Source: Rhizobium sp. CF122 (GTDB lineage: Bacteria > Pseudomonadota > Alphaproteobacteria > Rhizobiales > Rhizobiaceae). From it: a DNA stretch of 64,000 nt. The notes beneath the pieces are model-generated. The model was not told where the DNA came from. It worked only from the letters and a program-made list of their open reading frames with translations, and made no database searches. Of the stretch, positions 23,499-40,372 are shown in pieces (position 1 is the first letter of the stretch; each line of letters opens with the position of its first letter). Location: NCBI RefSeq assembly GCF_000282035.1, contig NZ_AKKA01000087.1, forward strand, positions 62,001-126,000. The letters are read 5' to 3'. Position numbers and translations under genes: made by a program.

Positions 23499-25634
23499 TT
23501 ACCACGTATAGCGCAGCCCGAAATCGCCTCGAACGCCATCGCGCTCGTGGCCATCGGTGTCCTCAACCGCGAACTGATACCCAGCCTGGGCATAAAAGCT
23601 CAGCCCGGCGTTGATTTTGGTGGTCACCCCGGCGCTCAGATCAACTCGCGTTGCCTGTTCCAGCAACGGAACCCGATCGACGCCCGAAAACGTCGTGGTC
23701 GGCTGTGCGCCCCAATCGCGCCACAAGTTGGCGCGCACATAAGGCTGCCAAACCTGACCATCATCGCTGACGATGGTCCAGCGGCCGCGCAGACCGAGCC
23801 GTCCGCTCGCTCCCGATGTTGAACCGAGCGCGACATCGCCCAAGCCGTCATTGTCGTCGTCGAACGAGACATGTTGCCAGATAATTTGCGCCTGCGGCTC
23901 CAGCACGAAGCCGGGACCGAGTCCCGGTATAGGAATGGGATAGCCCGCTTCCAGCGAGGAGGCGAAGCCGGTACCATTGGGCGACAGACTGGCGAAGTTC
24001 GTCGACGCCGAGCCTTCGTAGACTGTTGCCTGCAACACTGCATCGAGATACCAGCCGGTCGGGCCGTGGTGTGTCCAATAGGCGCCGCCCGACCAACCAT
24101 TGAGATTAACGCTGCCGGTCTTGCGTAGCGTATAGTTCGTTGCAGTCTCGTTGGTGACGAGGCCGGTCACGTCGACATTGGCATTGGCGAAGGCGAAGTA
24201 GATGCCGGCGACGTCGCGATGGCCGGGCAGCCATTCCCCGCGCAGCAGGTCGATGCCGCTCTGAAGGCCGCCCAAATAGCCGTCGGTGCGCGGATCGGCG
24301 AAGGCGCGATAGCGGTCGTTAATCTGCTCACCGAAGGCGCGGCCCCAAGCGGAACTGGCCCGGTTCCCGCCGCTGCTTTCCGGATTCCCTGTCGCAAGCG
24401 TGTCACCAATACGCTCATGCAAGGTCCCGAGCGTGGCTAGTCCAAGCTGCCGGGCAGTCGGCTGTACCGTACCGTAAGTCGCAATCTCCGGTCCGATGAT
24501 TGGATAAACCCCTGGCGGCAGTGTCGCCGGCAAGTCTTCCGGCAGTGCTTCTGGCGGCAGTTCGTCCGGCGGTGTGATCGGCCCATTGCCACCGTTGCCG
24601 TTGTCGCCGTTAAAATCCGAACGGAGGAACCAGTCATCGGCGTCGCTGTCGTTGAGGCCGCCGCGGAAGAGACGGTAGTCGATGAATCCGCCGCGCACCT
24701 CGCCGGCGAGCGTAAAGGCACCCTCCGTTGTCGTGCCGCCGTTGGTCGCGTCAACCACCAGGATACCGTCCGCCGCCGTGTAGGCGCCGGGGCTGTTCGG
24801 GCCAGAGATAATGTGCAGAAATGTGTTGCCCATTGCTTGGGCTGGACCATCGATCGTGATCGTACTGCCATCGATTACGAGCTTGTCGGACGGCGAGCTA
24901 TCGTCTCCCAGATCCGTTCTCAGGTAAATGGAACCCCCGGTGCCGTTATAGGGACCGAAGACAGTGAGCTCGTTGCCAACGCTGCTGTCGTCGCTGTTTG
25001 CAACAATGATGCTGCCGGCGTTGTCGATAGCACCCGTTGTCATCCCGGTTGTCGTCGAACGTCCCGACATGTCGAGCGTACCGTTTGACGCGATCACGAA
25101 TTTCGCCACGTCTCCAGTGGAGGCGCTCGTGAACTTGATCGTGCCGCCGCCAACGAGGCCTACATTGACGGTCGGTCTGTTGGCCGGAGTGTCGATCACG
25201 AACCCCGCGCCGTTGACGGTAAAGGTACTGTTGTTCTCCAAGCTCAGGACATAGCCTAGGGCGGTAAAATTGAGCCTGCCAATGGACTGGTTATTTTGGT
25301 CGCGGACCGTTCTGTTGCTCACCGTAGCCAGGTTTGTGAAGTTCGCAACCAGGAGCGGCGTAGCCTTGATGTCCCAGTTGTTTTGATTGTTCCACTGATT
25401 TGTTCCCGTACCGCCGATCCATGTCGCCGGCTCGTTGGTGGTGGCGAACACCTCCTGCGCGGCGGCCTGCGCCGACAGTCCAAGCGATGCGACCATAGGC
25501 AAGGCAAAAAGCCACGGCGGCCGCCAACTCGATGACACAAGACCGAACACGAGCGGCTTGCGCCGCTGGTGTTGTCCGTTGGAAAAGCCGTCAAAGGAAC
25601 AAGGTGCTTCGAAACAAAATCCACACATGCCCAT
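23499..25634 (-). CDS. Autotransporter with beta-barrel domain (type Va)
   Basis: The product is about 711 residues; the ATG at 25,634 follows GGGGGCGG, though nearby in-frame starts are possible. An extended signal region ends near AQAAAQE. The passenger (about residues 45-390) is rich in Asn, Thr and Gly and contains beta-helix-like repeats such as TVNGAGFVIDTP and GAIDNAGSIIVANS. A Pro-rich linker (PPDELPPEALPEDLPATLPPG) follows. The C-terminal barrel of roughly 270 residues ends in FGLRYTW, with the aromatic last residue needed for BAM recognition. No protease or lipase motif is visible in the passenger. It converges on the tetR gene. Confidence 0.85.
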   Translation of the reverse strand: MGMCGFCFEAPCSFDGFSNGQHQRRKPLVFGLVSSSWRPPWLFALPMVASLGLSAQAAAQEVFATTNEPATWIGGTGTNQWNNQNNWDIKATPLLVANFTNLATVSNRTVRDQNNQSIGRLNFTALGYVLSLENNSTFTVNGAGFVIDTPANRPTVNVGLVGGGTIKFTSASTGDVAKFVIASNGTLDMSGRSTTTGMTTGAIDNAGSIIVANSDDSSVGNELTVFGPYNGTGGSIYLRTDLGDDSSPSDKLVIDGSTITIDGPAQAMGNTFLHIISGPNSPGAYTAADGILVVDATNGGTTTEGAFTLAGEVRGGFIDYRLFRGGLNDSDADDWFLRSDFNGDNGNGGNGPITPPDELPPEALPEDLPATLPPGVYPIIGPEIATYGTVQPTARQLGLATLGTLHERIGDTLATGNPESSGGNRASSAWGRAFGEQINDRYRAFADPRTDGYLGGLQSGIDLLRGEWLPGHRDVAGIYFAFANANVDVTGLVTNETATNYTLRKTGSVNLNGWSGGAYWTHHGPTGWYLDAVLQATVYEGSASTNFASLSPNGTGFASSLEAGYPIPIPGLGPGFVLEPQAQIIWQHVSFDDDNDGLGDVALGSTSGASGRLGLRGRWTIVSDDGQVWQPYVRANLWRDWGAQPTTTFSGVDRVPLLEQATRVDLSAGVTTKINAGLSFYAQAGYQFAVEDTDGHERDGVRGDFGLRYTW

Positions 25635-26009
25635 CCGCCCCCAAACCAAGTCGCGAAAACATCAAAAGCGCGTCGCTGCCTATGTGGCTCGGATGCGCAA
25701 ATGCACGGAGCGTCACACCGGATCGTCTTGGGCGGCGGAGCGCAGGAATTGGCACAGTCAGGTCAGTATTCATACGAAGTGAGCCAGCGCACAATTTGTT
25801 GCTGTATTAGCATGCGCTTGCGCAACTGGATTTCCCGACGGCTGTTGCTATCGCGTCACACCGAGCCGTGCGCGCGCCGATCTCTGATTGGCGGCGAATT
25901 CACTTGGCGGAGGCGGGGTCCTTATCGGCCAGCGATGATCTTGTTCGATGATCAGAACTCGGACGTTTGAGAGGTCCATTCGGCAAGCAACCGCGACTAC
26001 CGCTGCATT
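25635..26009. other. Intergenic stretch with no identified gene
   Basis: This part lies upstream of the autotransporter and should contain its promoter. Short overlapping frames on both strands have no recognisable motif. I see no convincing regulatory repeat. The right part grades into the decayed transposase. Confidence 0.4.
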
Positions 26010-26422: not shown

Positions 26423-27184
26423 TTATTTCGGCTTGACGGGCAGTAGATTACCGAGCTCCATCGGAAAGGGAAACAAGATCGTTGAGCTCTTTTCGCTGGC
26501 GATGATGTTCAAAGTGCTTAAATAGCGTAGTTGCATAGCCTCCGGCTGCCTGGCGAGTATTTCGGCCGCTTCGAGGAGCTTTGCGGCTGCCTGCTGTTCA
26601 CCCTCGGCATTGATGACCTTTGCGCGGCGCTCGCGCTCGGCTTCCGCTTGGCGGGCAATCGCGCGGATCATCGATTCGTTGATGTCGACATGTTTGATCT
26701 CGACAGTGGCGACTTTGATGCCCCAAGCATCCGTCTGAGCGTCAAGGATTTCCTGAATGTCGGAGTTGAGCCTGTCACGTTCCGCCAGCATTTCATCGAG
26801 GTCGTGCTTGCCGAGTACCGAGCGTAATGTCGTCTGGGCAAGCTGGCTTGTCGCCATCATGAAGTCCTCGACCTGAATCGTCGACTTCTCGGGATCGATG
26901 ACCCGGAAGTAAATCACTGCGCTGACGCGGACCGAGACATTGTCATGAGAAATAACGTCCTGACTGGGGACATCGAGTACTCGCGTGCGCAAGTCGACCC
27001 GTATCATCTGCTGGACGTAGGGGATGAGGAATATCAAGCCGGGTCCCTTGACGCCGGTAAAGCGGCCAAGCGTGAAAACGACGCCGCGTTCGTATTCCCG
27101 CAGGATCTTGACCGCGGATGCGACGATGATGAGCAAGATAAGGATCGCCACGAGATAAAAGGCGAGATTTACAAACATACCCAT
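26423..27184 (-). CDS. Slipin/stomatin-like SPFH-domain membrane protein
   Basis: The 253-residue protein has one N-terminal transmembrane helix (about residues 6-26). An SPFH/Band 7 domain follows ([60 protein letters not shown]). The C-terminal SSTILFPFP segment is typical of slipins. GGAGGAGACGTC precedes the ATG. It lies 28 bases after the NfeD-like protease gene on the same strand. Slipin and NfeD form a widely conserved pair in which NfeD may cleave the slipin C-terminus; the role is in membrane microdomain organisation. Confidence 0.9.
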
Positions 27185-27212
27185 GACGTCTCCTCCTGCT
27201 TTCTGAAGGCCG

Positions 27213-28625
27213 CTAAGTCTCGTTGGGGCGCCTCTCGACCTCGAGAGTCAGCCCGTTGCGGGCGATCACGCTGACGGCGTCGCCAGCGGTAAGCGTCTCG
27301 GTGGAAATCGCTTTCCAGCGCTCGCCATGCGCGATGACGTAACCCGTGGCCCCACCCCAGCTCTCAACCTGGCCCGAAATCCCGATCATCTGCTCCGCAC
27401 CAGTAGCGACTTCGCGCCACCGCGAGGTAAATGCGAGGCGAGCAACGAGAAGGCTGAAAGCGAGGCATGCAAGAGCGATTGCGCCCAGTACCGGGCGCGA
27501 AACCTCCAGGCCTGGCATATCCGTATCAAACAGAATGGTTGCGCCCAGGATCACGGCTACCCCGCCACCGACGCCCAAGGCGCCGAAGCTTGGCGAATGT
27601 ATCTCAGCCACTGTCAATCCGACGCCGAGGAAAATAAGCCCAATGCCGGCAAAACTCACCGGGAGCAATGCCAAGGCATAGAGACCAAGAAGGAGGCAGA
27701 TGCCGCCGATCGTGCCGGGAAGCATTGTCCCGGGGGCAAGAAATTCGAAGATCAGGCCATAGATACCGACCATCATCAGGATGATCGCGATGTTCGGATC
27801 GGTAATCACGGAAAGCAGGCGTGTGCGCCAGTCCGGCTCGAATTCCTGCACGGCTAAACCGGCGGTATCGAGGCGGACATCCGTTTGACCGACCCGCACC
27901 ATGCGCGCCTGTGTCTGCGCAAGGAGATCGTTGACATCAACTGCCGTGAAATCAATGACATGTTCGCGCGCGGCAGCAGTCGATGAAAGGCTTGCGGCTT
28001 CCCGCACAGCCCGCTCTGCCCATTCGGCATTGCGATTGCGCAATTCCGCAAGCCCGCGAATGTACGCCACCGCGTCGTTAACGAGTTTTTTGTCGCTGGC
28101 GCTGCCTGGAGCCTCGGCCTGCTTGTCATTTTGCTTGCTCGGTTCTTGTTCGGGTTTCGTATCGCCGCCAAAAGGGTTTGCGCCGAGCGCGATCGGTGTC
28201 GCTGCTCCTAAGTTGGTGCCTGGCGCCATCGCCGCAATGTGGCTTGCGTAGAGAATATAGGTGCCGGCGCTGGCAGCCCGTGCCCCGCTCGGTGCGACGA
28301 AGCCCGCGACAGGCACGGGCGAGGCAAGGATCGCGCGAATGATTTTCCGCATGGAGGTGTCAAGGCCGCCGGGTGTGTCCATCTGCAGGATGATCAAGCC
28401 CGCTCCATGTTCGCCAGCACGCTGAAGGCCTCGTATCACATAATCTGCTGTTGCGGGCCCGATGGCGCCGTTCACCTTCAGGACGACCGCAGCGCGGTTG
28501 GATTGCGACGACGCCGATAGCGTGAAGATGCCCAGAGTTGATAGCAGCGAGAACAACAAGATCAGGATTGGCGGCAGCCACCGCCAACGCTTTAAGTTCA
28601 GCGCTACGACCTGCGGAACGCGCAT
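27213..28625 (-). CDS. NfeD-family membrane-bound serine protease (long form)
   Basis: The 470-residue protein has an N-terminal signal anchor and a ClpP-like protease domain (about 40-250). That domain includes [16 protein letters not shown] and [13 protein letters not shown], which carries the likely nucleophile Ser; a Lys-containing [19 protein letters not shown] follows. Several transmembrane helices (about 280-410) and a C-terminal OB-fold NfeD domain ([13 protein letters not shown] onward) complete it. This is the full NfeD1b form. A Pro/Glu/Lys/Gln-rich insertion (about 155-180) interrupts the protease domain. It is the first gene of the pair with the slipin. Confidence 0.88.
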
Positions 28626-29066
28626 GATTTCTAATATATGTCAGAAATCACAAAGAGAAAGGAAAGCATCGCAGGGTACGTCCAAAGACGAACGCAAAGC
28701 TCAAGCTTTCGCTCGAACGCTTGAGCTTGCGAGGATGCGACGTCTCGATCCTCGGACGGGCTGCAAAGCGCAACGGCGATTGTTGCCGCAACCCCTTCAT
28801 CAGAAAGCTTCGGAGGTCGGAAAACTGACCCCAGAACTGCGATGGCCACCAGGGCAAAAATACAGAAAATGCTAATACAGACACTCTAAATATAGCTCCC
28901 GATGTGATAAAATTTGCAACTCGCTCGAGGATGAGATGCCGGGCGACGTTTCGACTTTTCGCAGAGTGGTTCGCCTGTGTGTCGAGGTAGCGTTTCCGCC
29001 ATGCTGGAAAGACTGAATCCCCGATAAAGAGGCCTCGGGATAACATCTCGGAATGGGAGGTGTACA
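28626..29066. other. Divergent intergenic region nfeD / carbohydrate ABC operon
   Basis: About 440 bases separate the two start codons. A 139-codon frame on the minus strand spans most of it but shows no family motif and overlaps the only structured part, so I do not call it a gene. The left part holds two adjacent hairpins, described separately. The right part (28,850-28,930) is AT-rich and probably contains the promoter of the plus-strand operon; GGGAGGT precedes its first ATG. Confidence 0.45.
28694..28754. repeat. Two adjacent inverted repeats (hairpins) upstream of nfeD
   Basis: The first is a 10-bp perfect stem, AAGCTCAAGC (28,697-28,706) with GCTTGAGCTT (28,719-28,728), extendable by CGC/GCG across one bulged base. 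Its loop can fold further as TTCG/CGAA. The second is a 7-bp stem, CGAGGAT (28,730-28,736) with ATCCTCG (28,748-28,754). They lie 70-130 bases upstream of nfeD. They could be a leader-RNA structure, a small RNA terminator or a regulator site; the sequence does not decide. Confidence 0.5.
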
Positions 29067-30326
29067 ATGCTTCGCAGATTGTTTCTCACCTTGGCTATTG
29101 CGACTTCCGCGCTGGCGATCAACGGAGCCGCATGGGCTGACATCACGATCCTCGTGCCATCGGGCAGCGAGGGCGACGGTCTCAGGGCCGCTGCCGAAGA
29201 CTATGGAAAGTTGAAGGGCACGAAGGTGGAGGCCGTCCAGGCGCCCTATGCCAACGTGTTCGAGCAGGGCGCCAATGCCGGCGCGACCAAGTCCGGTGTC
29301 TTCGACATTATCCTGATGGACGATCCGTGGATTCCGTTTTTCGCCGAGAATGGACATCTGGAAGATCTGACCGCCTACTTCAAGAAGGCCGGAATGGAGG
29401 GGCCTGACAGTGATTTCCTTTCGAAGTCGCTGGCGGTCTGCCGCAATCCCTACAATACGGGGCCCTATGTATGTCTACCCTACGTGGGAAATGCGCAGAT
29501 GTTTTTCTATGATGCTGCCAAGTACAAGGAAGCTGGCGTAGATGCTCCAAAGACTTGGGATGACGTGTTGAAGGCGAGCACGAAGCTGACAGAAAGCGGA
29601 GGTGGCCGTTATTTCGGTTACGTCTTCCGAGGCGGCCAGGGAAATCCGGTGGTTGCCGATTTCATGCCGATCTTCTGGTCCTATGGTGCGGATATGTTCA
29701 GCGCCGACCGAACCAAGGTAACGATCGACACGTCTGAAGGGGCCGCTGCCATGAAGACATTCATGGCGCTACGCGATGTCTCGCCGAAGGGAGTGGAGAG
29801 CTACAATGCCAACGAGGTTGGCACGGCGCTAGCCGCCGGTACTGCTGCTTCATCGATCAACTGGCCGAACTGGGTGGCGACCTTTGAAGATCCGACCCAA
29901 TCGAAGATGGTCGGCAAAATCTCCTACAGTCCCATTCCTGCTGGAACGAAACCGGGCAGCTCGGAAATCGGCCACTGGACCATGGGCATCATGTCGGCCT
30001 CCAAGAATAAGCAGGAAGCTTTCGACTTCATGATGTGGGCGACCTCGCCTGAACAGATCAAGATTTCGGCCCTACGGGGCAATCCGCCTGTCCGGACCTC
30101 GGTCTTCACCGACCCGGAACTGACCTCGCAGGAGAAGTTCCGGCACTATCCGGTGTTGATGGAGGCGATCCAGGCCTCGACTCCCCGTCCGCGTCACCCG
30201 AAGTGGCCAGAGATCGAGAACGCCTTCGGCATCGAGCTTTCCAAGGCGGTCGCAGGTACGATCACGCCGGAAGAGGCTCTGAAGAACTCGCAGGAGGCGG
30301 TCTCACGGATTACCAACCTTTACTAG
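29067..30326 (+). CDS. Carbohydrate ABC transporter substrate-binding protein (CUT1)
   Basis: The 419-residue protein has a signal peptide (LRRLFLTLAIATSALAING, cleavage after AWA near residue 25) and a family 1 extracellular solute-binding fold. Typical parts are GVFDIILMDDPWIPFFAENGHLEDL (read in shorter pieces), YNTGPYVCLPYVGNAQMFFY, KTWDDVLKASTKL and a C-terminal TPEEALKNSQEAV. GGGAGGT precedes the ATG. It opens a six-gene operon with two permeases, an ATPase and two exported proteins. The ligand is likely a sugar, polyol or related compound; sequence alone does not tell which. Confidence 0.86.
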   Translation: MLRRLFLTLAIATSALAINGAAWADITILVPSGSEGDGLRAAAEDYGKLKGTKVEAVQAPYANVFEQGANAGATKSGVFDIILMDDPWIPFFAENGHLEDLTAYFKKAGMEGPDSDFLSKSLAVCRNPYNTGPYVCLPYVGNAQMFFYDAAKYKEAGVDAPKTWDDVLKASTKLTESGGGRYFGYVFRGGQGNPVVADFMPIFWSYGADMFSADRTKVTIDTSEGAAAMKTFMALRDVSPKGVESYNANEVGTALAAGTAASSINWPNWVATFEDPTQSKMVGKISYSPIPAGTKPGSSEIGHWTMGIMSASKNKQEAFDFMMWATSPEQIKISALRGNPPVRTSVFTDPELTSQEKFRHYPVLMEAIQASTPRPRHPKWPEIENAFGIELSKAVAGTITPEEALKNSQEAVSRITNLY

Positions 30327-30339
30327 GCAACAGCTATTC

Positions 30340-30365
30340 GGAGCGGGGTTTTCGGACGCCGCTCC
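30340..30365 (+). promoter_or_regulatory. Intercistronic hairpin after the binding-protein gene
   Basis: A 7-bp stem (GGAGCGG / CCGCTCC) with a 12-base loop begins 14 bases after the stop codon and about 85 bases before the first permease gene. Its position matches the usual hairpin that keeps binding-protein mRNA more abundant than the permease part. It has no T-run. Confidence 0.5.
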
Positions 30366-30448
30366 CTTGCTGCGCCGGCAATCGCGTCCGATGAGCTTGA
30401 AACCCGAGAATTCAGGCGTGTCGGGGCAGGGCTTTACGGGAGAGGTCA

Positions 30449-31372
30449 ATGTTGACGTCGGAGAGCGGAACTGTGGCCGCGCCGCTTCCAACGGGTGGCG
30501 GTTTGGAGCGATGGGTAGAGCGGCATTTGCGCTTCCTCATGCCTGCGCCGACAGTTCTCATACTCCTCGGCCTGACGATCTTTCCCAGCGTCTACATGTT
30601 CTATGCGGCGGTTCACAAAATCAGCCCGAATCCCGATCTGCCCTGGACGTTCGTCGGTGCCGGTAATTTCGCGCGGCTTTTTTCCGACACGCAATTTCAC
30701 GTCGCGCTCTGGAACACCACCGTATTTACGGTCGCGGCGGTGACGGCGGAATTCATCCTCGGTCTCGGCCTGGCGCTGCTCCTCGATAAATTCATTCGCA
30801 AGTTGACCTTTCTGAAGACAGTCCTGATGATCCCCATGATGCTGCCGCCGATCGCGGTCGCGATCACATGGAAGCTCATCTATGAACCTCAGTTCGGCGT
30901 CCTGAACGAAATCATGTTCCGCCTCGGTCTGCCATTGCAGGCATGGGCGGGCGACGTGAATCTTGCGATGTTCTCGATCATCGTCGCTGATGTCTGGCAA
31001 TGGACACCCTTCATATTCCTTCTAATGTTGGCGGGGTTGGCCAGCTTGCCGGTCGAGCCCTACGAGGCCGCCGCGCTCGACGGAGCCTCGTCCTGGCAGC
31101 AGTTCCGGGACCTGACGCTGCCGTTCCTCAAGCCGGTTATCGCCATTGCGCTCCTTCTGCGTGTCATGGATGCACTGCGTCTTTTCGATCTGGTCTTCAT
31201 ACTGACGGGAGGAGGGCCGGCTGACCGGACCAAGGTCTTGAGCCTTTATATCTATCAAGTCGCCTACCGCTTCGCCGATCCAGGCTACGCGGCGGCGATG
31301 TCGCTTTTCGTGCTGTTTGTGACGATCGTCTTAAGCACCTGGTTCATGAAACGCATGCGGTTGGCGGAATGA
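30449..31372 (+). CDS. Carbohydrate ABC transporter permease (CUT1, MalF-like)
   Basis: The 307-residue protein has six predicted transmembrane helices, the first at about residues 28-50 (LILLGLTIFPSVYMFYAAV). The EAA loop reads PYEAAALDGASSWQQFRDLTLP. GGGAGAGG lies before the ATG. It forms the channel with the next permease and overlaps it by ATGA at 31,369-31,372. Confidence 0.92.
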   Translation: MLTSESGTVAAPLPTGGGLERWVERHLRFLMPAPTVLILLGLTIFPSVYMFYAAVHKISPNPDLPWTFVGAGNFARLFSDTQFHVALWNTTVFTVAAVTAEFILGLGLALLLDKFIRKLTFLKTVLMIPMMLPPIAVAITWKLIYEPQFGVLNEIMFRLGLPLQAWAGDVNLAMFSIIVADVWQWTPFIFLLMLAGLASLPVEPYEAAALDGASSWQQFRDLTLPFLKPVIAIALLLRVMDALRLFDLVFILTGGGPADRTKVLSLYIYQVAYRFADPGYAAAMSLFVLFVTIVLSTWFMKRMRLAE

Positions 31373-32244
31373 CCATGACACTGCCCAAAACCATACACGC
31401 GCGCAGTCGGACCACAGAGGTGCTCATTCGCCTGCTGGCCTATCTGACGATCGTTGTCGCGCTGGTCGTCACACTTTTTCCGATCTATTGGATCGCGACC
31501 AACTCGTTTAAATATGATATCGACATATTCGCGGTGCCGCCGGAGTGGCTACCGCGCAACCCCACCCTAAAACACTATAGCGAAGCGTTTATTCAGCGTC
31601 CGTTCCTACGCTACGCGTTGAATAGCTTTCTCGTCGCTGTAGGAACGACGATCATTTCCGTGACCTTCGGCACCATGGCCGGCTATGCCTTGGCACGGTT
31701 CAGCTATCCCTGGCAGTGGCGGAAGCAGATTTCGTTCTGGATCCTGTCGACGCGCATGATGCCGCCTATCGTCAGTATCATTCCGCTCTACCTGTTCTTC
31801 AACTATTTCGACATGCTCAACACCAAGTCGGCTCTTATCGTCGCCTACACTGCCTTCAATCTGCCGTTCGCAACGTGGATGATGAAGAGTTATTTCCAGG
31901 ATCTTCCGGTCGAACTGGAGGAGGCGGCGATCGTCGACGGCGACACACGGTGGGGCGCATTCCTGCATGTGGCGTTACCTCTTGCCCGGCCTGGGCTTGC
32001 GGCCACCGCGATCTTCTGTCTGATCATCTCGTGGAACGAGTTTCTACTTTCCCTCATCATCACGCTCACCGAGCAGTCGCAGACGCTGCCGATCGGCATT
32101 GCCGGGCGCGTAACGCAGTACAACACCTATTGGGGTGAAATCAGTGCGGCGGGCTTCATGGCCTGCGTGCCAATCGTCATCTTCGCCTTCATCGTCCAGA
32201 AGCATCTCGTCCGGGGATTGTCCCTGGGTGCCATCAAAGGTTGA
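31369..32244 (+). CDS. Carbohydrate ABC transporter permease (CUT1, MalG-like)
   Basis: The 291-residue protein shows the MalG-type features SFKYDIDIFAVPPEWLP, six helices and an EAA loop reading EEAAIVDGDTRWGAFLHVAL. Its C-terminus VRGLSLGAIKG is typical of this subfamily. A second ATG two codons after the first could equally be the start. It is translationally coupled to the upstream permease. Confidence 0.92.
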   Translation: MTMTLPKTIHARSRTTEVLIRLLAYLTIVVALVVTLFPIYWIATNSFKYDIDIFAVPPEWLPRNPTLKHYSEAFIQRPFLRYALNSFLVAVGTTIISVTFGTMAGYALARFSYPWQWRKQISFWILSTRMMPPIVSIIPLYLFFNYFDMLNTKSALIVAYTAFNLPFATWMMKSYFQDLPVELEEAAIVDGDTRWGAFLHVALPLARPGLAATAIFCLIISWNEFLLSLIITLTEQSQTLPIGIAGRVTQYNTYWGEISAAGFMACVPIVIFAFIVQKHLVRGLSLGAIKG

Positions 32245-32249
32245 GACCT

Positions 32250-33311
32250 ATGGCGTCCGTCACATTCAAGAACGTCTGCAAGAAATTCGGCGAATTCGTT
32301 GCCGTAAATGATTTCAACCTCGACATCAGGGACAAGGAGTTTCTCGTTTTGCTCGGACCTTCCGGTTGCGGCAAGACAACGACCATGCGGATGGTCGCGG
32401 GTCTCGAGGAAGCGACGTTCGGCGACATCTACATCAACGAGGACCGCGTCAACGGTGTCCTTCCCAAGTATCGCGACGTTGCAATGGTATTCCAGTCATA
32501 TGCTTTGTATCCGCACCTTACCGTCGAAGACAACATCGGCTACCCGCTGAAGATCCGCAAAGTGCCGCCCGCTGAATGCAAGCGACGAATAGCAGAGGTT
32601 GCACGGCGTGTAGAACTCGACTCTATGTTGTCGCGGCTGCCGAAGGAACTTTCCGGCGGGCAGCGCCAGCGCGTGGCACTTGCCCGCGCTATCGTGCGCA
32701 CGCCACGCGTCTTTCTGATGGACGAGCCGCTGTCCAATCTCGATGCCAAGCTGCGCACACAGATGCGCGCCGAGCTGAAGCATCTGCAACATGAGCTGCA
32801 GGTCACGACGATCTACGTCACCCATGACCAGATCGAAGCGATGACGCTTGCCCATCGCGTGGCCGTGATGAACAAGGGCGTTATCGAGCAGCTTGGGACG
32901 CCGCGGGAGATCTATAACGACCCGCGCACGCTCTTCGTTGCCGGCTTTATTGGCTCGCCGCCGATGAACCTAATTCCAGGAGAAGTGAGAGACGGTGTGT
33001 TCGTTAGCGGCGGTCTCAGGGTCGGCGGTATCGGCCGGGCGACCCTCTCTGGCGCTGTCCTCGGCGTCCGGCCGGAGGACGTCCACCCGACTGATGCCGG
33101 TGACGCAGACGTCAATCTGGTCGCGCCGATCTATTCGGCGGAACTCACCGGCGAGAACACGCTTGTGAGCCTACGGTTGGGAGGTCAACTCATGACCTTG
33201 CGTGCCGACAAGAATTTCACGGGTCAGATCGACCAGCAGATCGGCGTCAAGGTCGCGGCGGATCGCGTATTTCTGTTCAATGGCGAGACCAAAGATCGTG
33301 TTGACTTCTAG
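32250..33311 (+). CDS. Carbohydrate ABC transporter ATPase (CUT1, MalK/UgpC-like)
   Basis: The ATG at 32,250 gives MASVTFKNVCKKFGEF, the usual opening; an in-frame TTG at 32,241 is disregarded. The 353-residue protein has Walker A GPSGCGKTTT, Q-loop VFQSYALYPH, signature LSGGQRQRVALARAI, Walker B VFLMDEPLSNLDAK and switch YVTHDQIEAMT. A C-terminal TOBE-like domain contains GVRPEDVHPTD. Its last 32 bases overlap the next gene. Confidence 0.93.
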   Translation: MASVTFKNVCKKFGEFVAVNDFNLDIRDKEFLVLLGPSGCGKTTTMRMVAGLEEATFGDIYINEDRVNGVLPKYRDVAMVFQSYALYPHLTVEDNIGYPLKIRKVPPAECKRRIAEVARRVELDSMLSRLPKELSGGQRQRVALARAIVRTPRVFLMDEPLSNLDAKLRTQMRAELKHLQHELQVTTIYVTHDQIEAMTLAHRVAVMNKGVIEQLGTPREIYNDPRTLFVAGFIGSPPMNLIPGEVRDGVFVSGGLRVGGIGRATLSGAVLGVRPEDVHPTDAGDADVNLVAPIYSAELTGENTLVSLRLGGQLMTLRADKNFTGQIDQQIGVKVAADRVFLFNGETKDRVDF

Positions 33312-34068
33312 CCTTTGGGCGGCAGTGATGGTGATCATCCTTGCATTTGCTGCGACCGCTGACGATGGCGGCCTCATCGCTGGAAATCCGCTGATTGAGA
33401 TTCCTCCCGGGACGTTCATCTTCGGCCGCGACGACGGCCCCGAAAACGAAAGCCCGCGGCGCGAACTGGAGGGGCAGGCGTTTGCAATCAATCGCACCGA
33501 GATTACAAACCAGCAATATGGGCTCTTCGTCAAGGAGACCGGCCATCGTGCAGCCTTTTACGCCAATCATCCAATCCTGGGATTGGACGACCGGCCGGTC
33601 GTCGGGGTGAGTTGGGGAGATGCCGATGCATTTTGCCGTCACTATGGGTTGGTTCTTCCATCGGAACAACAATACGAGCGGGCGGCGCGAGGAACTCAGG
33701 GCAGCGCGTTTCCATGGGGCGAGGTGCCACCGGGCAATGCGCGGGCAAATTCGGGAGCGGATGTCTGTTGTTCCGGTGACGTGCGCGATGGGTATCCGAT
33801 GACCGCACCAGCGGTGTCCTTCGCTGATGGCGCAAGCAAAGAGGGCATCTTCAATCTTGTCGGCAACGTCTGGGAGTGGACCCGTGACGTCTACGCGCCG
33901 TATGAAGGCGGGAGCGCGGTGAGGAGTGCCGGGCTGTACCGCGTGCTTCGTGGTGGCTCTTGGAACAGCGATCCAAACCACCTGACAACGACCTATCGGC
34001 TCGCCTATGATCCGGAATTCCGGTTCTCAGCCAACGGTGGCTTCAGATGCGTCCGTTCTACACCTTGA
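33280..34068 (+). CDS. Exported SUMF1/EgtB/PvdO-fold protein
   Basis: The ATG at 33,280 gives 262 residues starting with a hydrophobic export signal (TSSLWAAVMVIILAFAATA). The rest is a formylglycine-generating-enzyme (FGE-sulfatase) fold: IPPGTFIFGRDD, FAINRTEITNQQYGLFV, RPVVGVSWGDADAFCRHYG, FNLVGNVWEWTRDVY, LRGGSWNSDP. True formylglycine-generating enzymes carry active-site cysteines just after the GGS(W/Y) motif; here that stretch reads NSDPNHLTTTYRLA with none. It is therefore probably not a sulfatase activator but a periplasmic protein with a reused fold. It overlaps both neighbours, implying tight coupling to the ABC transporter. Confidence 0.82.
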   Translation: MARPKIVLTSSLWAAVMVIILAFAATADDGGLIAGNPLIEIPPGTFIFGRDDGPENESPRRELEGQAFAINRTEITNQQYGLFVKETGHRAAFYANHPILGLDDRPVVGVSWGDADAFCRHYGLVLPSEQQYERAARGTQGSAFPWGEVPPGNARANSGADVCCSGDVRDGYPMTAPAVSFADGASKEGIFNLVGNVWEWTRDVYAPYEGGSAVRSAGLYRVLRGGSWNSDPNHLTTTYRLAYDPEFRFSANGGFRCVRSTP

Positions 34069-35054
34069 TTGTCGTCACCGGTTTTCTGCTGCTAGCCGCC
34101 GGCGCCGGTGCGGAACCGACGGCGCCGCCCGGCTACACGCTTAAGACCTTCAACACGCCTGGTGCCGCCTTCGCCGGCCTATCTCGCGACGCCGAAGGCC
34201 TGCTCGTCAGTGATCTCGCCAGCGGCCGGCTCTACCGGCGCGGCGCGGACGGCAAGCTTGTCGCATTCGGCCCGGTATTTCCCCATGGCCTCGACGTGAT
34301 CGGCGACCCGACCGGTCCATATCGTGTCGTGCGCGCCCACGATGGCCTTGTCGTCGCTCAGGGATGGACGCCAGTCGGCTCCAAAGAAGGGCCGTTTGAC
34401 CACGCGCTCGTTGCGCTCGACGCGGCCGGTCAGGTCCGCGTGATCAGCAGCGATTTCTGGAATCCGTTCGACTTCATTGCGGCGAGCGGAAGCTACTACG
34501 TGATAGACTCCGCTCGAAACAGTGTCGAACGTCTACTGCCGGGCGGCAGCAAAAGCACGATTCTGACATTCCGCCGCATGGGGCAGGCGGCCACGGCACT
34601 CCGCAGCCTTTCGCCGACGGAGTTCACCGAAGGCAACAGCTACGAAACCGATGCGGTGCCGGCCGGTATCGCCCTTCACGGCGGGCGCCTCTATATAGCG
34701 CTGTTCGGCGGCTTTCCCTTCCTTACCGGTGCCGGAGAGATTGTTTCGATTCCCGAGGCTGGCGATCAGTCAATGCCGCAGATTGACGTCGAAGCGCTCA
34801 ATGCGCCCGTCAGTATTGCTTTCGACAACGATGGAGAGATGCTTGTCCTCGAGCACGGCACCTACGACCAGAAGGAAGGTTTTCGCAAGGCGAGTGGGAG
34901 ATTGCTTAAGTTCAATAAGATGACGCGGGAACCGAAGGTTATTCTCGAGGGCCTGACCCGCCCGGTGTCTGTGCTTGTCTGGGACGAGCGGCGGATGGTC
35001 GTTTCCGCGTTGGACGGCAACCTCTATGTTCTGACGCGCGAATCTGCTCGCTAA
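34047..35054 (+). CDS. Exported ScyD/ScyE-like beta-propeller protein
   Basis: The 335-residue protein has a signal peptide (LIVVTGFLLLAAGAGA) and repeated propeller-type blades such as GLSRDAEGLLVSDLASGRLYR, YYVIDSARNSVERLLPGG and GEMLVLEHGTYDQ (read as short parts). A segment PTEFTEGNSYETDAVPAGIALHGGRLY resembles ScyD/ScyE-family proteins as I remember them. The start overlaps the SUMF1-like gene by 22 bases. Function is unknown; a secreted binding or hydrolytic role tied to the transporter substrate is possible. It is the last gene of the six-gene operon. Confidence 0.7.
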   Translation: MRPFYTLIVVTGFLLLAAGAGAEPTAPPGYTLKTFNTPGAAFAGLSRDAEGLLVSDLASGRLYRRGADGKLVAFGPVFPHGLDVIGDPTGPYRVVRAHDGLVVAQGWTPVGSKEGPFDHALVALDAAGQVRVISSDFWNPFDFIAASGSYYVIDSARNSVERLLPGGSKSTILTFRRMGQAATALRSLSPTEFTEGNSYETDAVPAGIALHGGRLYIALFGGFPFLTGAGEIVSIPEAGDQSMPQIDVEALNAPVSIAFDNDGEMLVLEHGTYDQKEGFRKASGRLLKFNKMTREPKVILEGLTRPVSVLVWDERRMVVSALDGNLYVLTRESAR

Positions 35055-35267: not shown

Positions 35268-35882
35268 TCAATCACCGAATTTCAGCCGCTCCAAGATCAG
35301 CGGGTCATACGCGGGAGCCTGGATCCGCCGGCGATCCGCCTCTGGTTCGCTGAGCGGCTCGACGGGTCGAAGTTTGTCCTTGGCTTCCAGCGCGAGGCGC
35401 TGATAGACGCCCGTTCCCTGGCGCTTCCAGGCGATTTCTTTTTCGCTGAGTTCGCGAATGACCCTGGCAGGTGATCCGACCGCCAGGCTGTTTGCCGGGA
35501 TTTCCGCACCTGCCTTGACGAAAGCCATGGCGGCAACAATCGAATTTTCGCCGATCACCGCTTCGTCCATGACGACCGCATTCATCCCGACCATGGCATT
35601 GCGACCGATGCGGCAGCCGTGCAGCACGGCGCCGTGGCCGATATGACCGTCTTCGCCGATCACCACCTCCACATCAGGAAAGCTATGAACGACGCAGGTC
35701 TCCTGGACGTTCGAGCCACGTTCCATGACGATCCGCCCGAAATCGCCGCGCAATACGGCGCAGGGGCCAACATAGCAGGCCGATCCAATGATGACGTCAC
35801 CAATCACTACGGCGGCCGGATGGACGAAAGCCGTTGGGTGGATCACCGGTACGACGCCATCATAGGAATAGACCTGCGCCAT
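35268..35882 (-). CDS. paaY: Phenylacetate pathway thioesterase-like hexapeptide protein PaaY
   Basis: The ATG at 35,882 lies 5 bases after the paaZ stop. The 204-residue protein is a gamma-carbonic-anhydrase-like left-handed beta-helix: [64 protein letters not shown]. The C-terminal [18 protein letters not shown] is typical of PaaY. PaaY has been linked to hydrolysis of dead-end CoA thioesters formed when ring opening stalls. Its place directly after paaZ agrees. Confidence 0.9.
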
Positions 35883-35887
35883 CTTAA

Positions 35888-37945
<2,058 letters not shown>

Positions 37946-37961
37946 TGTCTTATCCTTCCGG

Positions 37962-38717
37962 TCAGTTCAGATTGAGCGCAGCAAGCTGCGCATCGACGGC
38001 TGCCTGCCATTCAGATAGCAGCGTCTCGTTGGGAGTATGGCGCAGACCGAAACGTGCCAGCGTTTCGTAGCGGGTCGAGCCGGAGAGTCCGAAGCTTGCA
38101 GCAACGCGCGGGCGCCAGTAGGCGATCGCTTCACGCGCGGCCGTCGCTCCGTCTTCATTTTCAGCAATCCGCTTCAGCGCCTCGATGCCAAGTTCGGTGT
38201 GATGCGCCTCTCGCGGCAGAACCGCGCGGAACACTTCGGCAAGCGGCTGGTAGGAGACGTGGGTCAGTTCCCGCAGCTGGATGGTGCCTGCAGTGCCCAT
38301 CAGCATATTCATGACAACCGCGTCGATCCATCCCTGCAAGGGATAGTGGAAGACCGAGAGGCGCATGTCGCCGCCCTGGCGTGCTGCACCGATATCGGCC
38401 TCACGCGTCAGGCGGGCACCCCACGGATGATGCACGGCATAGCGGTCGGTGTCTGCACCGAAGCTGCCCATGATCTCCAGCACGCGGCCGGCGTGGTCGG
38501 TCTTTTCAAGCACGATCTTGGCGGACGCAATGCGTTCCTTGATGCCCGGCGCATCGTTGATCGTGTCTGCAAAGCCGGCCGCACCCGCAAGCTCGCTGTC
38601 GACGAAGCTCGCCATCAGGCGCAGAAGCTCGCCGCGATAGCGCGGGGTCACATTGTCAGGCGACGTCAGCACGCCGCCCTTGAGCAGATATTCCTCGATC
38701 GGCATCGTATCTGACAT
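37962..38717 (-). CDS. PaaA/PaaC-family protein, extra epoxidase-like subunit
   Basis: Two ATGs six bases apart are possible; GGGAGGA abuts the first (38,723) and sits 6 bases from the second, so 38,717 is chosen. The 251-residue helical protein belongs to the phenylacetic acid catabolic family (ferritin-like). Putative metal ligands are visible in QLRELTHVSY, EKTDHAGR and REAHHTELG (ExxH). It lies between paaE and paaZ, where the E. coli operon has no gene. It is not paaA or paaC, both of which are present, so it may be a second oxygenase or accessory subunit. Confidence 0.75.
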   Translation of the reverse strand: MSDTMPIEEYLLKGGVLTSPDNVTPRYRGELLRLMASFVDSELAGAAGFADTINDAPGIKERIASAKIVLEKTDHAGRVLEIMGSFGADTDRYAVHHPWGARLTREADIGAARQGGDMRLSVFHYPLQGWIDAVVMNMLMGTAGTIQLRELTHVSYQPLAEVFRAVLPREAHHTELGIEALKRIAENEDGATAAREAIAYWRPRVAASFGLSGSTRYETLARFGLRHTPNETLLSEWQAAVDAQLAALNLN

Positions 38718-38744
38718 CGGCATTCCTCCCTCGATCTCGCCACC

Positions 38745-39821
38745 TTACTGGTCGTAGCTGACCACGACGCGGTCGCTCAGCGGATAACATTGGCAGGTCA
38801 ACACGTAGCCCTGGCGGACCTCGTAGTCCTCCAGCGCATGATTGACCTCCATCTCGGTCTCGCCCTCAATCACCTTGGCCCTGCACGTGGAACAGACACC
38901 TGCCTTGCAGGCATAGGGCGCGTCCATGCTGTTCTTAAGAGCGGCCTCGAGCAGTGTTTGTCCCTGCTTCGGCATCTTGAAGACGCGGGTCGCGCCGTCG
39001 AGGGTAACTGTCGCCTCGCATGCCGCTCCCCTGTCGGCAGCGACAGCACTCTCGCTCTTTCGGCGTGCGCGGCCGGGCTGCGAGGACGCAAAGAGCTCGA
39101 ACTTGATCTGCTCCTCGCGCATGCCGCGATCGCGAAGGGCGGCTGCGATCGTCAGCATCATCGGTTCGGGACCGCAGATGAAGACGGTGTCGACTGATTT
39201 GAGGTCAATCCAGTGCTTGAACAGTGCTGCGCATTTGTCAGCGTCGATACGGCCCGTGAAGAGATCGATGTCCTGGGCTTCGCTTTCCAGCACATGCAGA
39301 ATGGAGAGCCGCCCAAGATAAGTATTCTTCAGGTCCTCCAGTTCTTCGCGGAACATGATCGAACTGATCTGGCGGTTCGCGTAGACGAGCGTGAAGCGCG
39401 AGCGGGGCTCGCGCGCAAGCGTCGTCTTGATGATGGACAGCACCGGCGTGATGCCGCTGCCGCCGGCAAAGCCGAGATAGCTTTTGGAGATCTCAGGTTC
39501 AATCGCGGTGAAGAATGCGCCCATCGGCGGCATCGCTTCCAGCCTGTCACCGATCCGCAATTCTTCATTCGCCCAGGTTGAGAAGCAGCCGCCATCGACC
39601 CGCTTGATGCCGACCCTCAGGACGCCTTCATCACGTCCAGCACAGATCGAATAAGACCGGCGCAGCTCCTCGCCGTCGAACTTGCGGCGGAACGTCAGGT
39701 ACTGGCCCTGCGTGAAATCGAACGCACCGCGGTCCTCGTCTTGCGGAGCGAGCGTGACGACCACGGCATCGCGCGTCTCGCGCCTGACGTCGGTGACTTG
39801 AAGGGAATGGAAACGCGCCAT
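38745..39821 (-). CDS. paaE: Phenylacetyl-CoA epoxidase reductase PaaE
   Basis: The 358-residue protein starts with MARFHSLQVTDVRRETRDAV. It has the flavin motif RRSYS (54-58), NAD(P) motif GGSGITP (120-126) and a C-terminal plant-type [2Fe-2S] cluster (Cys305, Cys310, Cys313, Cys343). This is the reductase that passes electrons to PaaABC. GAGG lies about 9 bases before the ATG at 39,821; an upstream in-frame ATG inside the end of paaD is less likely. Length matches the E. coli protein. Confidence 0.94.
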   Translation of the reverse strand: MARFHSLQVTDVRRETRDAVVVTLAPQDEDRGAFDFTQGQYLTFRRKFDGEELRRSYSICAGRDEGVLRVGIKRVDGGCFSTWANEELRIGDRLEAMPPMGAFFTAIEPEISKSYLGFAGGSGITPVLSIIKTTLAREPRSRFTLVYANRQISSIMFREELEDLKNTYLGRLSILHVLESEAQDIDLFTGRIDADKCAALFKHWIDLKSVDTVFICGPEPMMLTIAAALRDRGMREEQIKFELFASSQPGRARRKSESAVAADRGAACEATVTLDGATRVFKMPKQGQTLLEAALKNSMDAPYACKAGVCSTCRAKVIEGETEMEVNHALEDYEVRQGYVLTCQCYPLSDRVVVSYDQ

Positions 39822-39847
39822 ATTGCGGACCTCACTGGGCAAAAGGG

Positions 39848-40372
39848 TCAGATGCACTTGAAGTAGTCGAATGGTTCAAGACAGTCGGTGCAGCGATAGC
39901 TCGCCTTGCAGGGCGTCGAGCCGAACTGGCTGATCTTTTCCGTGTTCGTCGATCCGCAGCGCGGACAGGCGATTGTCAGATTGGAGCGGCCGGACAGCCG
40001 GTCGATACGCTGGCGCAGAATGCCATCTATCGCGGTGCCGTCCACCGGCGGGGCAATGCCGTAGGTGCGCAGCTTGTCGCGACCCGCCGGGCTGATCCAG
40101 TCGGTTGTCCAGGCAGGCGAAAGCTGGCGTTCCAGCCGCAGCTTGTCGATCCCCTTTTCCTTGAGTGCCTGCTCGATATCGAGGTTGATGATCGCAGTTG
40201 CCGGGCAGCCGGAATAGGTCGGCGTCACTGTCACGACCAGTGTGTCCTCCTTCCAGGCGACACCACGGATGATGCCGAGATCGACAAGCGAGATCACCGG
40301 GATTTCCGGATCCGGGACTTCCTCAAGCCATTGCCAGACATCGGCGATCGAAGGCAAAGTCTCGGCTATCAT
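39848..40372 (-). CDS. paaD: Phenylacetyl-CoA epoxidase accessory protein PaaD
   Basis: The 174-residue protein has an N-terminal MIP18/DUF59 domain (PDPEIPVISLVDLGIIRGV, TYSGCPATAIINLDIEQAL) and a C-terminal Cys-rich part (CPRCGS, STPC, CTDC). PaaD is needed for maturation of the multi-component oxygenase, probably in Fe-S or diiron assembly. GGAGG precedes the ATG. It sits in canonical order between paaC and paaE. Confidence 0.93.
   Translation of the reverse strand: MIAETLPSIADVWQWLEEVPDPEIPVISLVDLGIIRGVAWKEDTLVVTVTPTYSGCPATAIINLDIEQALKEKGIDKLRLERQLSPAWTTDWISPAGRDKLRTYGIAPPVDGTAIDGILRQRIDRLSGRSNLTIACPRCGSTNTEKISQFGSTPCKASYRCTDCLEPFDYFKCI

What the first reader, a model, noticed from the sequence alone, without database searches (positions are those of the whole stretch)
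29067..35054. Carbohydrate ABC transporter fused in one operon to a SUMF1-fold protein and a propeller protein
Six plus-strand genes overlap or nearly touch; the last three overlap by 32 and 22 bases. The two additions are both exported. They may process or present the substrate in the periplasm before uptake, a layout I do not know from a characterised transporter.
Basis: partly seen in the sequence, partly recalled or inferred. Interest (0 to 1): 0.55.

Follow-up and report, generated by a model that had tools for sequence, protein, structure and literature searches.

The report
Sugar importer with two periplasmic add-ons
A rhizobial sugar-type ABC importer is repeatedly found with genes for two exported proteins of unknown role, one resembling the sulfatase-activating enzyme but without its catalytic cysteines and one a beta-propeller, so the six genes very likely work as one uptake machine.

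Summary
Six separate plus-strand genes lie at 29067-35054: solute-binding protein (SBP), two permeases, MalK/UgpC-type ATPase, a SUMF1-fold protein and a propeller. The 32- and 22-base overlaps are real; nothing is fused, and SBP and permease 1 are 122 bases apart. In the 52nd genome all six exist, but the SBP ends another contig beside a transposase gene. Starting from the SBP instead, 15 of 16 family genomes show the whole set; the 16th is that same genome. Neighbouring genes vary, and a promoter-like element recurs in 35 of 52 upstream regions. All six genes are under purifying selection. The SUMF1-fold protein lacks the cysteine pair of formylglycine-generating enzymes, which another protein of the same genome has. 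The propeller models as an NHL/SMP-30-type fold. New here: SBP and both permeases were exchanged as a block between lineages, while ATPase, SUMF1-fold protein and propeller stayed together. Most likely the exported pair captures or pre-processes a carbohydrate ligand for the SBP; this is inferred. Propellers encoded with metal ABC systems (AztD, PedA2) are partial precedents. Substrate unknown.

The parts
28872..28913 (+). conserved promoter-like element upstream of the SBP: CTAATACA-nn-CWCTCTAAAT, 9 bases, GATGTGATAAAAT; its end lies about 153 bases before the SBP start codon
   Evidence: 35 of 52 upstream regions score 20-31 of 31, best of 260 shuffles 19, 17 regions below 20. The consensus was taken from the same sequences and the shuffles are mononucleotide. 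No other copy within 2 mismatches of its first box in the genome
29067..30326 (+). solute-binding protein (SBP_bac_1), 419 aa, Sec-like N-terminus
   Evidence: PF01547 178.9 bits; 88% mean column identity over 19 rows
30449..31372 (+). inner-membrane permease 1
   Evidence: PF00528 67.6 bits
31369..32244 (+). inner-membrane permease 2
   Evidence: PF00528 71.5 bits
32250..33311 (+). ATPase, UgpC/MalK type
   Evidence: PF00005 109 bits, OB_MalK 28.1; NF008653 438.1 bits, cut-off 432
33280..34068 (+). exported SUMF1-fold protein, 262 aa; lacks the Cys pair of FGE; carries an adjacent Cys pair C163-C164 in all 40 rows aligned
   Evidence: PF03781 153.2 bits
34047..35054 (+). exported propeller, ScyD/ScyE-like, 335 aa, no cysteine
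   Evidence: NF033206 81.6 bits; sequence; AlphaFold2 model pLDDT 86.9; fold matches

Best explanation
The six genes form one self-contained uptake module. SBP, two permeases and ATPase make a carbohydrate-type (CUT1) ABC importer (shown by family membership). The SUMF1-fold protein and the propeller are exported and act as a periplasmic pair that captures, or prepares, a carbohydrate-containing ligand and hands it to the SBP (inferred). The SUMF1 fold would serve as a binding domain and not as a cysteine-oxidising enzyme. The back half (ATPase, SUMF1-fold protein, propeller) is inherited as a block that can be recombined with a diverged SBP-permease block, so the pair appears to serve the importer type and not one single SBP variant.
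For: Six genes in order on one contig in 51 of 52 loci from Rhizobium, Pararhizobium, Ensifer/Sinorhizobium, Phyllobacterium, Mesorhizobium and a distant proteobacterial MAG; in the 52nd, Pseudaminobacter arsenicus, the five others are together and the SBP is on a second contig end beside a transposase gene. Found from the SBP instead of the propeller: 15 of 16 family genomes show all six together, the 16th being that same genome. In the genus 8 of 100 genomes have an SBP of 78% identity or more (next best 33%) and all 8 show the six genes. The same 22 plasmid records hold all three marker proteins. 37 different nearest-neighbour pairs over 52 loci with a recurring upstream element. The 22-base overlap of SUMF1-fold and propeller genes is kept in 49 of 52. 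Block exchange. SBP positions aligned with what I recall as sugar contacts of the trehalose/maltose-binding protein 1eu8 (alignment) are invariant: D85, N142, W266, W304, R374. In the most distant carrier a xylF-type SBP, a pentonate dehydratase and a xylose isomerase gene lie within 10 kb.
Against: No tool shows that the pair touches the SBP or the ligand. Orthologs this close could stay together because they were inherited or transferred together, and many loci are related. The SUMF1-fold and propeller proteins diverge faster (mean column identity 69% over 40 rows and 72% over 52) than the SBP (88% over 19 rows) (different row sets), which is more than one might expect of parts fitted to a nearly unchanging SBP. 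ATPase and SUMF1-fold genes do not overlap in 9 of 52 loci (heuristic starts), so an internal promoter is possible there. 17 of 52 upstream regions do not score above the shuffles. The AlphaFold2 model of the SUMF1-fold protein failed (pLDDT 46.7). The pentose neighbourhood is a single locus.
Confidence: 0.5

Rival explanations
1. The pair is a periplasmic oxidoreductase or lactonase that chemically converts the ligand before uptake; the importer takes up the product. It would work like PvdO (SUMF1 fold) and ScyE (propeller family), both thought to carry out oxidative steps in the periplasm.
For: The final oxidation of pyoverdine in the periplasm depends on PvdO (passages). ScyE is posited to dimerise the scytonemin monomer oxidatively in the periplasm (passages). 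The propeller model aligns with lactonases and SMP-30-like proteins among others. Several polar residues of the propeller are invariant in 52 rows: D83, D118, H119, N139, D142, D154, N158, E192.
Against: No FGE cysteine pair and no DinB-type domain match. PvdO is a weaker profile match (3.5e-11) than SUMF1 (9.7e-34) and SUMF2 (3.2e-31). Pfam SMP-30 (PF08450) is listed for only 1 of 4 orthologs scanned, at E 0.17 and under its cut-off. PvdO as purified was itself inactive and without a detectable cofactor.
Confidence: 0.3
2. The module handles a metal or a metal-bound ligand: the propeller is a metallochaperone that loads the SBP, as AztD does for zinc in AztABCD.
For: AztD, a propeller encoded in the aztABC operon, transfers zinc directly to the SBP AztC (passages). 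A propeller protein, PedA2, is also encoded with the lanthanum ABC system PedA1A2BC (passages); what it does there is not said in the passages.
Against: SBP, permeases and ATPase match sugar-importer families best, and the SBP keeps tryptophans aligned with sugar-site ones. AztD is described as eight-bladed; this model aligns best with six-bladed designs and similar propellers. No AztD chain is among the 52 profile matches.
Confidence: 0.08
3. The two genes have an unrelated envelope function and are simply co-transcribed passengers.
For: No biochemical link is shown; a remote ScyD/ScyE relative in Spirosoma has no ABC transporter among the 16 annotated features around it; 9 of 52 loci have a gap before the SUMF1-fold gene.
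Against: In every ortholog-bearing genome examined all six genes were found, over many genomic contexts.
Confidence: 0.1
4. The SUMF1-fold protein is an active formylglycine-generating enzyme that modifies a cysteine of an exported partner.
For: Strong FGE-sulfatase domain match.
Against: The Cys pair is absent, while protein L001 of the same genome has it at the corresponding place. The propeller has no cysteine, and the SBP cysteines C125 and C136 lie in CRNPY and CLPYV, not CxPxR (that FGE needs the pair and reads CxPxR is recalled).
Confidence: 0.02

Closest known systems
CUT1 carbohydrate ABC importers (UgpBAEC, MalEFGK type; the name CUT1 is recalled)
   Same: SBP_bac_1 binding protein, two BPD_transp_1 permeases, one UgpC/MalK-type ATPase
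   Different: two exported accessory proteins in every complete locus examined; no regulator or catabolic enzyme recurs beside it in all lineages
AztABCD zinc importer with propeller AztD (PMC6689063, passages)
   Same: propeller protein encoded in the operon of an ABC importer; AztD passes its ligand to the SBP
   Different: metal importer; eight-bladed propeller; no SUMF1-fold partner in the passages seen
PedA1A2BC lanthanum ABC system (PMC12997753, passages)
   Same: propeller (PedA2), SBP, permease and ATPase encoded together
   Different: ATPase annotated as efflux type; sits in the PQQ alcohol-oxidation (ped) cluster; the word SUMF1 does not occur in the paper's main text
SUMF1/SUMF2/PvdO superfamily
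   Same: FGE-sulfatase domain, residues 38-259 of 262
   Different: lacks SUMF1's Cys pair; has an adjacent Cys pair not aligned with cysteines in SUMF1; sits with a transporter
ScyD/ScyE family (scytonemin cluster)
   Same: exported protein, NF033206 just over cut-off
   Different: partners are a SUMF1-fold protein and an importer, not scytonemin genes

Membership tests
CUT1 carbohydrate ABC importer | SBP_bac_1 protein, two permeases and a MalK/UgpC-type ATPase in one locus | tested here: met
CUT1 carbohydrate ABC importer | imports a carbohydrate | not testable with these tools
   residues aligned with recalled sugar contacts of 1eu8 are kept, but there are no binding data
Formylglycine-generating enzyme (SUMF1) | FGE-sulfatase fold | tested here: met
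   PF03781 153.2 bits, cut-off 23.3
Formylglycine-generating enzyme (SUMF1) | copper-binding Cys pair near the C-terminus | tested here: not met
   RGGSWNSDPNHLTTTYR in the window; W228-N229-S230-D231 invariant in 40 rows; protein L001 of the same genome has GGSHLCAPNYC (the role of the pair is recalled)
EgtB / SenA | DinB-type iron domain in front of the FGE domain | tested here: not met
   the FGE domain is the only Pfam match in a 262-aa protein (the domain layout of EgtB is recalled)
PvdO | equivalog-level match | tested here: not met
   NF051459 48.3 bits against a cut-off of 500
ScyD/ScyE family (NF033206) | score above the curated cut-off | tested here: met
   81.6 bits against 80; marginal
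SMP-30/gluconolactonase | Pfam PF08450 above cut-off | tested here: not met
   (4 orthologs; listed for one, 11.9 bits against 26.3); the fold alone is similar
SMP-30/gluconolactonase | metal-binding catalytic residues | not testable with these tools
   no coordinates of the model were available for superposition
AztD zinc metallochaperone | eight-bladed zinc-binding propeller | tested here: inconclusive
   the model aligns best with six-bladed designs and similar propellers; AztD is not in the rows shown

The most novel reading that the evidence does not exclude
A carbohydrate ABC importer with an obligatory two-protein periplasmic front end, a catalytically altered SUMF1-fold protein and a propeller, that captures or converts its ligand before the SBP. 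Its back half (ATPase plus periplasmic pair) is kept as an interchangeable block while SBP and permeases are swapped in one piece between lineages.
Probability: 0.4. Interest if true: 0.7.

Novelty: new variant of a known kind. Interest (0 to 1): 0.5.

Why it matters
Sugar ABC importers are usually described as SBP, permeases and ATPase, with ligand capture by the SBP alone. A six-gene unit that keeps two exported proteins across genera and contexts suggests that an extra periplasmic step is needed. The natural exchange of the SBP-permease block in front of a retained ATPase-accessory block gives a ready-made experiment on which parts must match. A sulfatase-modifying label for such a protein would be misleading here.

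Tried and rejected
Active FGE: rejected on the missing cysteines. EgtB/SenA-like iron enzyme: rejected, no DinB-type match. Substrate from a linked catabolic gene or regulator: no neighbour cluster recurs in more than 11 of the 58 stretches clustered, apart from the six genes themselves (cluster 6, 29 loci, holds ORFs read against the operon's own genes). Substrate from a regulon: the first box of the element has one exact place in the genome, at the operon, plus two at 3 mismatches; the reversed control pattern gave two. Structure of the SUMF1-fold protein: model failed, pLDDT 46.7. Fold search: propellers of many functions tie, so it does not name an activity. A different ligand for the exchanged SBP type: not supported, 26 fixed differences between 5 and 22 rows, but the mapped residues are the same. 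The distant MAG's order: 10 genomes searched, the propeller only in the MAG itself. Literature: searches, 97 of the held open-access library gave, in the rows listed, no paper I recognised as describing this operon; PMC5789663 and PMC3687685 were searched for passages without a relevant hit; PMC3454389 outline and abstract only; PMC7463823 seen in a listing only. The plasmid records carry almost no gene annotation at these loci. An error of mine, mended on re-checking: I had first taken genome G1068 (SBP without neighbours) for a plain contig cut; one search shows a gene for a transposase after the SBP, and searches show that the other five genes stand on another contig of the same genome, the one seen before as L073.
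Full report
WHAT IS THERE. The window lies at bases 62001-126000 of contig 87 of a 6.14-Mb genome. By its SBP (98%) Rhizobium tibeticum (L037) and Rhizobium sp. T136 (L009) are among its nearest named relatives. Six plus-strand ORFs run from 29067 to 35054 (details in the observation check). They are bounded by minus-strand genes: an NfeD/Band-7 pair upstream and phenylacetate genes downstream. Families are as stated; the ATPase reaches the UgpC subfamily cut-off. 'Fused' is wrong, and SBP and permease 1 are 122 bases apart.

IS IT A UNIT. The genome scan with a propeller alignment returned 44 loci. 51 of 52 carry all six genes in order on one contig; among these the SBP match is partial in L068 (residues 99-418) and permease 1 in L039 (residues 1-256). 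The exception is L073, Pseudaminobacter arsenicus, where the contig ends before the SBP.

The reverse test starts from the SBP at E 1e-90: 16 of 394 family genomes have it, and 15 of them show all six genes together. In the 16th, G1068, the SBP is followed by a DDE-type transposase gene and the contig end; the other five genes stand at the end of another contig of that genome, which is identical to the L073 stretch. So both exceptions are one genome that has all six genes, perhaps with an insertion between SBP and permease 1. Most genomes of this reverse test repeat loci of the first set, so only the search direction is independent. In the genus, 8 of 100 genomes have an SBP of 78% identity or more, the next best being 33%; all 8 show the six genes, with permease 1 partial in one. 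In the phylum sample only the window's genome has the SBP at E 1e-90 (1 of 398). The propeller is in 5 of 151 family genomes and matches 2 of 385 in the class sample, the window's genome and a partial 25-bit hit. Among plasmids, 22 records each hold SBP, SUMF1-fold protein and propeller at 60% identity or more, and they are the same 22. The module is therefore patchy and often on large plasmids. A 38-39% SBP relative in Burkholderia has two permeases but matches to neither extra gene, nor to the ATPase, in the 19 kb read.

CONTEXT AND PROMOTER. Nearest neighbours of 150 aa or more form 37 different pairs over 52 loci (the window and 51 others; mechanical ORFs, contig ends counted as a state). 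Yet an element CTAATACA-nn-CTCTCTAAAT ... GATGTGATAAAAT lies before the SBP, mostly ending 151-167 bases upstream, in many Rhizobium, Pararhizobium and Ensifer/Sinorhizobium loci. 35 of 52 regions score 20 or more of 31; the best of 260 shuffles was 19. The consensus came from these same sequences, the shuffles are mononucleotide and the sequences are related, so this shows conservation and not function. The 17 regions below 20 include Mesorhizobium, Phyllobacterium, the MAG, L042 and the S. terangae/psoraleae group. The 22-base overlap of the last two genes is kept in 49 of 52 loci; the ATPase and SUMF1-fold genes overlap in 43 and are separated in 9, with heuristic starts. dN/dS is 0.04-0.11 for the transporter genes and 0.19-0.33 for the two extras, in five comparisons each: all are constrained genes.

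BLOCK EXCHANGE. In five of the 28 rows put into trees (L015 R. jaguaris, L042, L050 R. calliandrae, L060 Sinorhizobium shofinae, L106) SBP and permeases are only 71-80% identical to the window's but 87-97% to each other, while L060's ATPase, SUMF1-fold protein and propeller are 94, 80 and 88% identical to those of S. americanum L070. The five front blocks form one clade (support 100/100). Holding their back blocks together is rejected (p-AU 0.0003), as is holding the front block of L060 with L061 and L070 (p-AU 2e-36). The groups were chosen after seeing the identities, which makes these p-values optimistic. Along the DNA, L060 and L070 agree at about 90% from the promoter to about window position 29230, fall to 62-80% over 29230-32215 (44% in one short, gappy stretch between SBP and permease 1), and return to 80-93% to the end, apart from one 77% stretch at the start of the SUMF1-fold gene. 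Two crossovers thus replaced most of the SBP and both permeases, leaving promoter, ATPase, SUMF1-fold protein and propeller. The back blocks of the five lie in two or three places on the tree (L106's place is weakly supported), so there were probably at least two exchanges. SBP positions mapped to sugar contacts are the same in both types, so the ligand class is probably unchanged.

THE TWO EXPORTED PROTEINS. The SUMF1-fold protein aligns with human FGE over residues 94-258 and more weakly over 34-90 but has RGGSWNSDPNHLTTTYR where FGE has its two cysteines. 22 of 28 orthologs fit the strict pattern RGG[SA]WNS.....T..[YF]R; the 6 others did not fit it and were not looked at singly, though W228-N229-S230-D231 are invariant in 40 rows. 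The same genome encodes a protein with both cysteines in that motif (L001). An adjacent pair C163-C164 is present in 28 of 28 and 40 of 40 rows. No usable model: pLDDT 46.7. The propeller model is good (pLDDT 86.9, pTM 0.86). Its best structural alignments are Cj1041c, designed six-bladed Pizza6 proteins, SMP-30-like lactonases and NHL domains, Z 25-28 with rmsd 2.1-2.9 over about 230-260 residues. Such ties do not reveal an activity.

SBP. The profile finds sugar and polyol binding proteins, best 5iai at 1.6e-39. D85, N142, W266, W304 and R374 align with chain positions 69, 122, 256, 294 and 363 of the trehalose/maltose-binding protein 1eu8, which I take to be D70, D123, W257, W295 and R364 (numbering and contact role recalled). 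All five are invariant among the 28 aligned SBP rows where these are filled. In the most distant carrier (L080, 44-67% identity) a D-xylose binding protein and a pentonate dehydratase, both over their cut-offs, and a xylose isomerase over the cut-off of one subfamily model lie within 10 kb; two possible xylose dehydrogenases are under theirs. This is one locus and only a lead towards pentoses.

MECHANISM. Shown: membership of the families, linkage, selection, block exchange. Inferred: export (N-termini only), one transcript, and a periplasmic pair that hands a captured or converted ligand to the SBP. The kept 22-base overlap suggests coupled synthesis of the two exported proteins and perhaps a complex. 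Whether the pair binds or converts cannot be told; loss of known FGE and EgtB catalytic features leans to binding, while PvdO and ScyE keep an oxidative role open.

KNOWN PRECEDENTS. AztD, a propeller encoded in the aztABC operon, passes zinc to its SBP (passages of PMC6689063). PedA2 is a propeller protein encoded with the lanthanum ABC system PedA1A2BC (passages of PMC12997753). I found no paper on a SUMF1-fold protein with an ABC importer in the rows listed (open-access library only).

VERDICT. A real, conserved, unusual transporter module; a new variant of a known kind; mechanism open but directly testable.

Noticed in passing
window 23499-25649 (-): Autotransporter with beta-domain (PF03797 120.4 bits) and autochaperone domain, upstream of the Band-7/NfeD pair.
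   Followed up: no
window 26423-28625 (-): Band-7/SPFH protein next to an NfeD-type membrane protein, transcribed away from the operon; the NfeD cluster is present in 7 of the stretches clustered.
   Followed up: no
window 35268-39857 (-): Phenylacetate-type genes (hexapeptide protein, aldehyde dehydrogenase-MaoC fusion, PaaA/PaaC, ferredoxin reductase) convergent with the operon; the same nearest neighbour in 4 other stretches only.
   Followed up: partly
L080:11129-20754: In the distant MAG the module lies near a pentose cluster: xylF-type SBP, ABC genes, pentonate dehydratase, xylose isomerase and possible xylose dehydrogenases.
   Followed up: partly
L105:174-1115: In genome G1068 (the genome of L073) a DDE-type transposase gene follows the SBP at a contig end; the other five operon genes are on another contig.
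   Followed up: partly
window 29067-30326 (SBP): Two cysteines, C125 and C136, invariant in 19 aligned rows, possibly a disulfide near N142.
   Followed up: no
L029 and L039 (Rhizobium freirei PRF 81), permease 1: The permease 1 alignment stops at residue 256 of 307, perhaps a frameshift or assembly error; likewise the SBP of L068/L033 (Mesorhizobium sp. L-8-3) matches only from residue 99.
   Followed up: no
L016:8509-16687 (Spirosoma oryzicola plasmid): A remote ScyD/ScyE-family protein stands about 2.4 kb before TonB-receptor and RagB/SusD-type nutrient-uptake genes (annotation).
   Followed up: no
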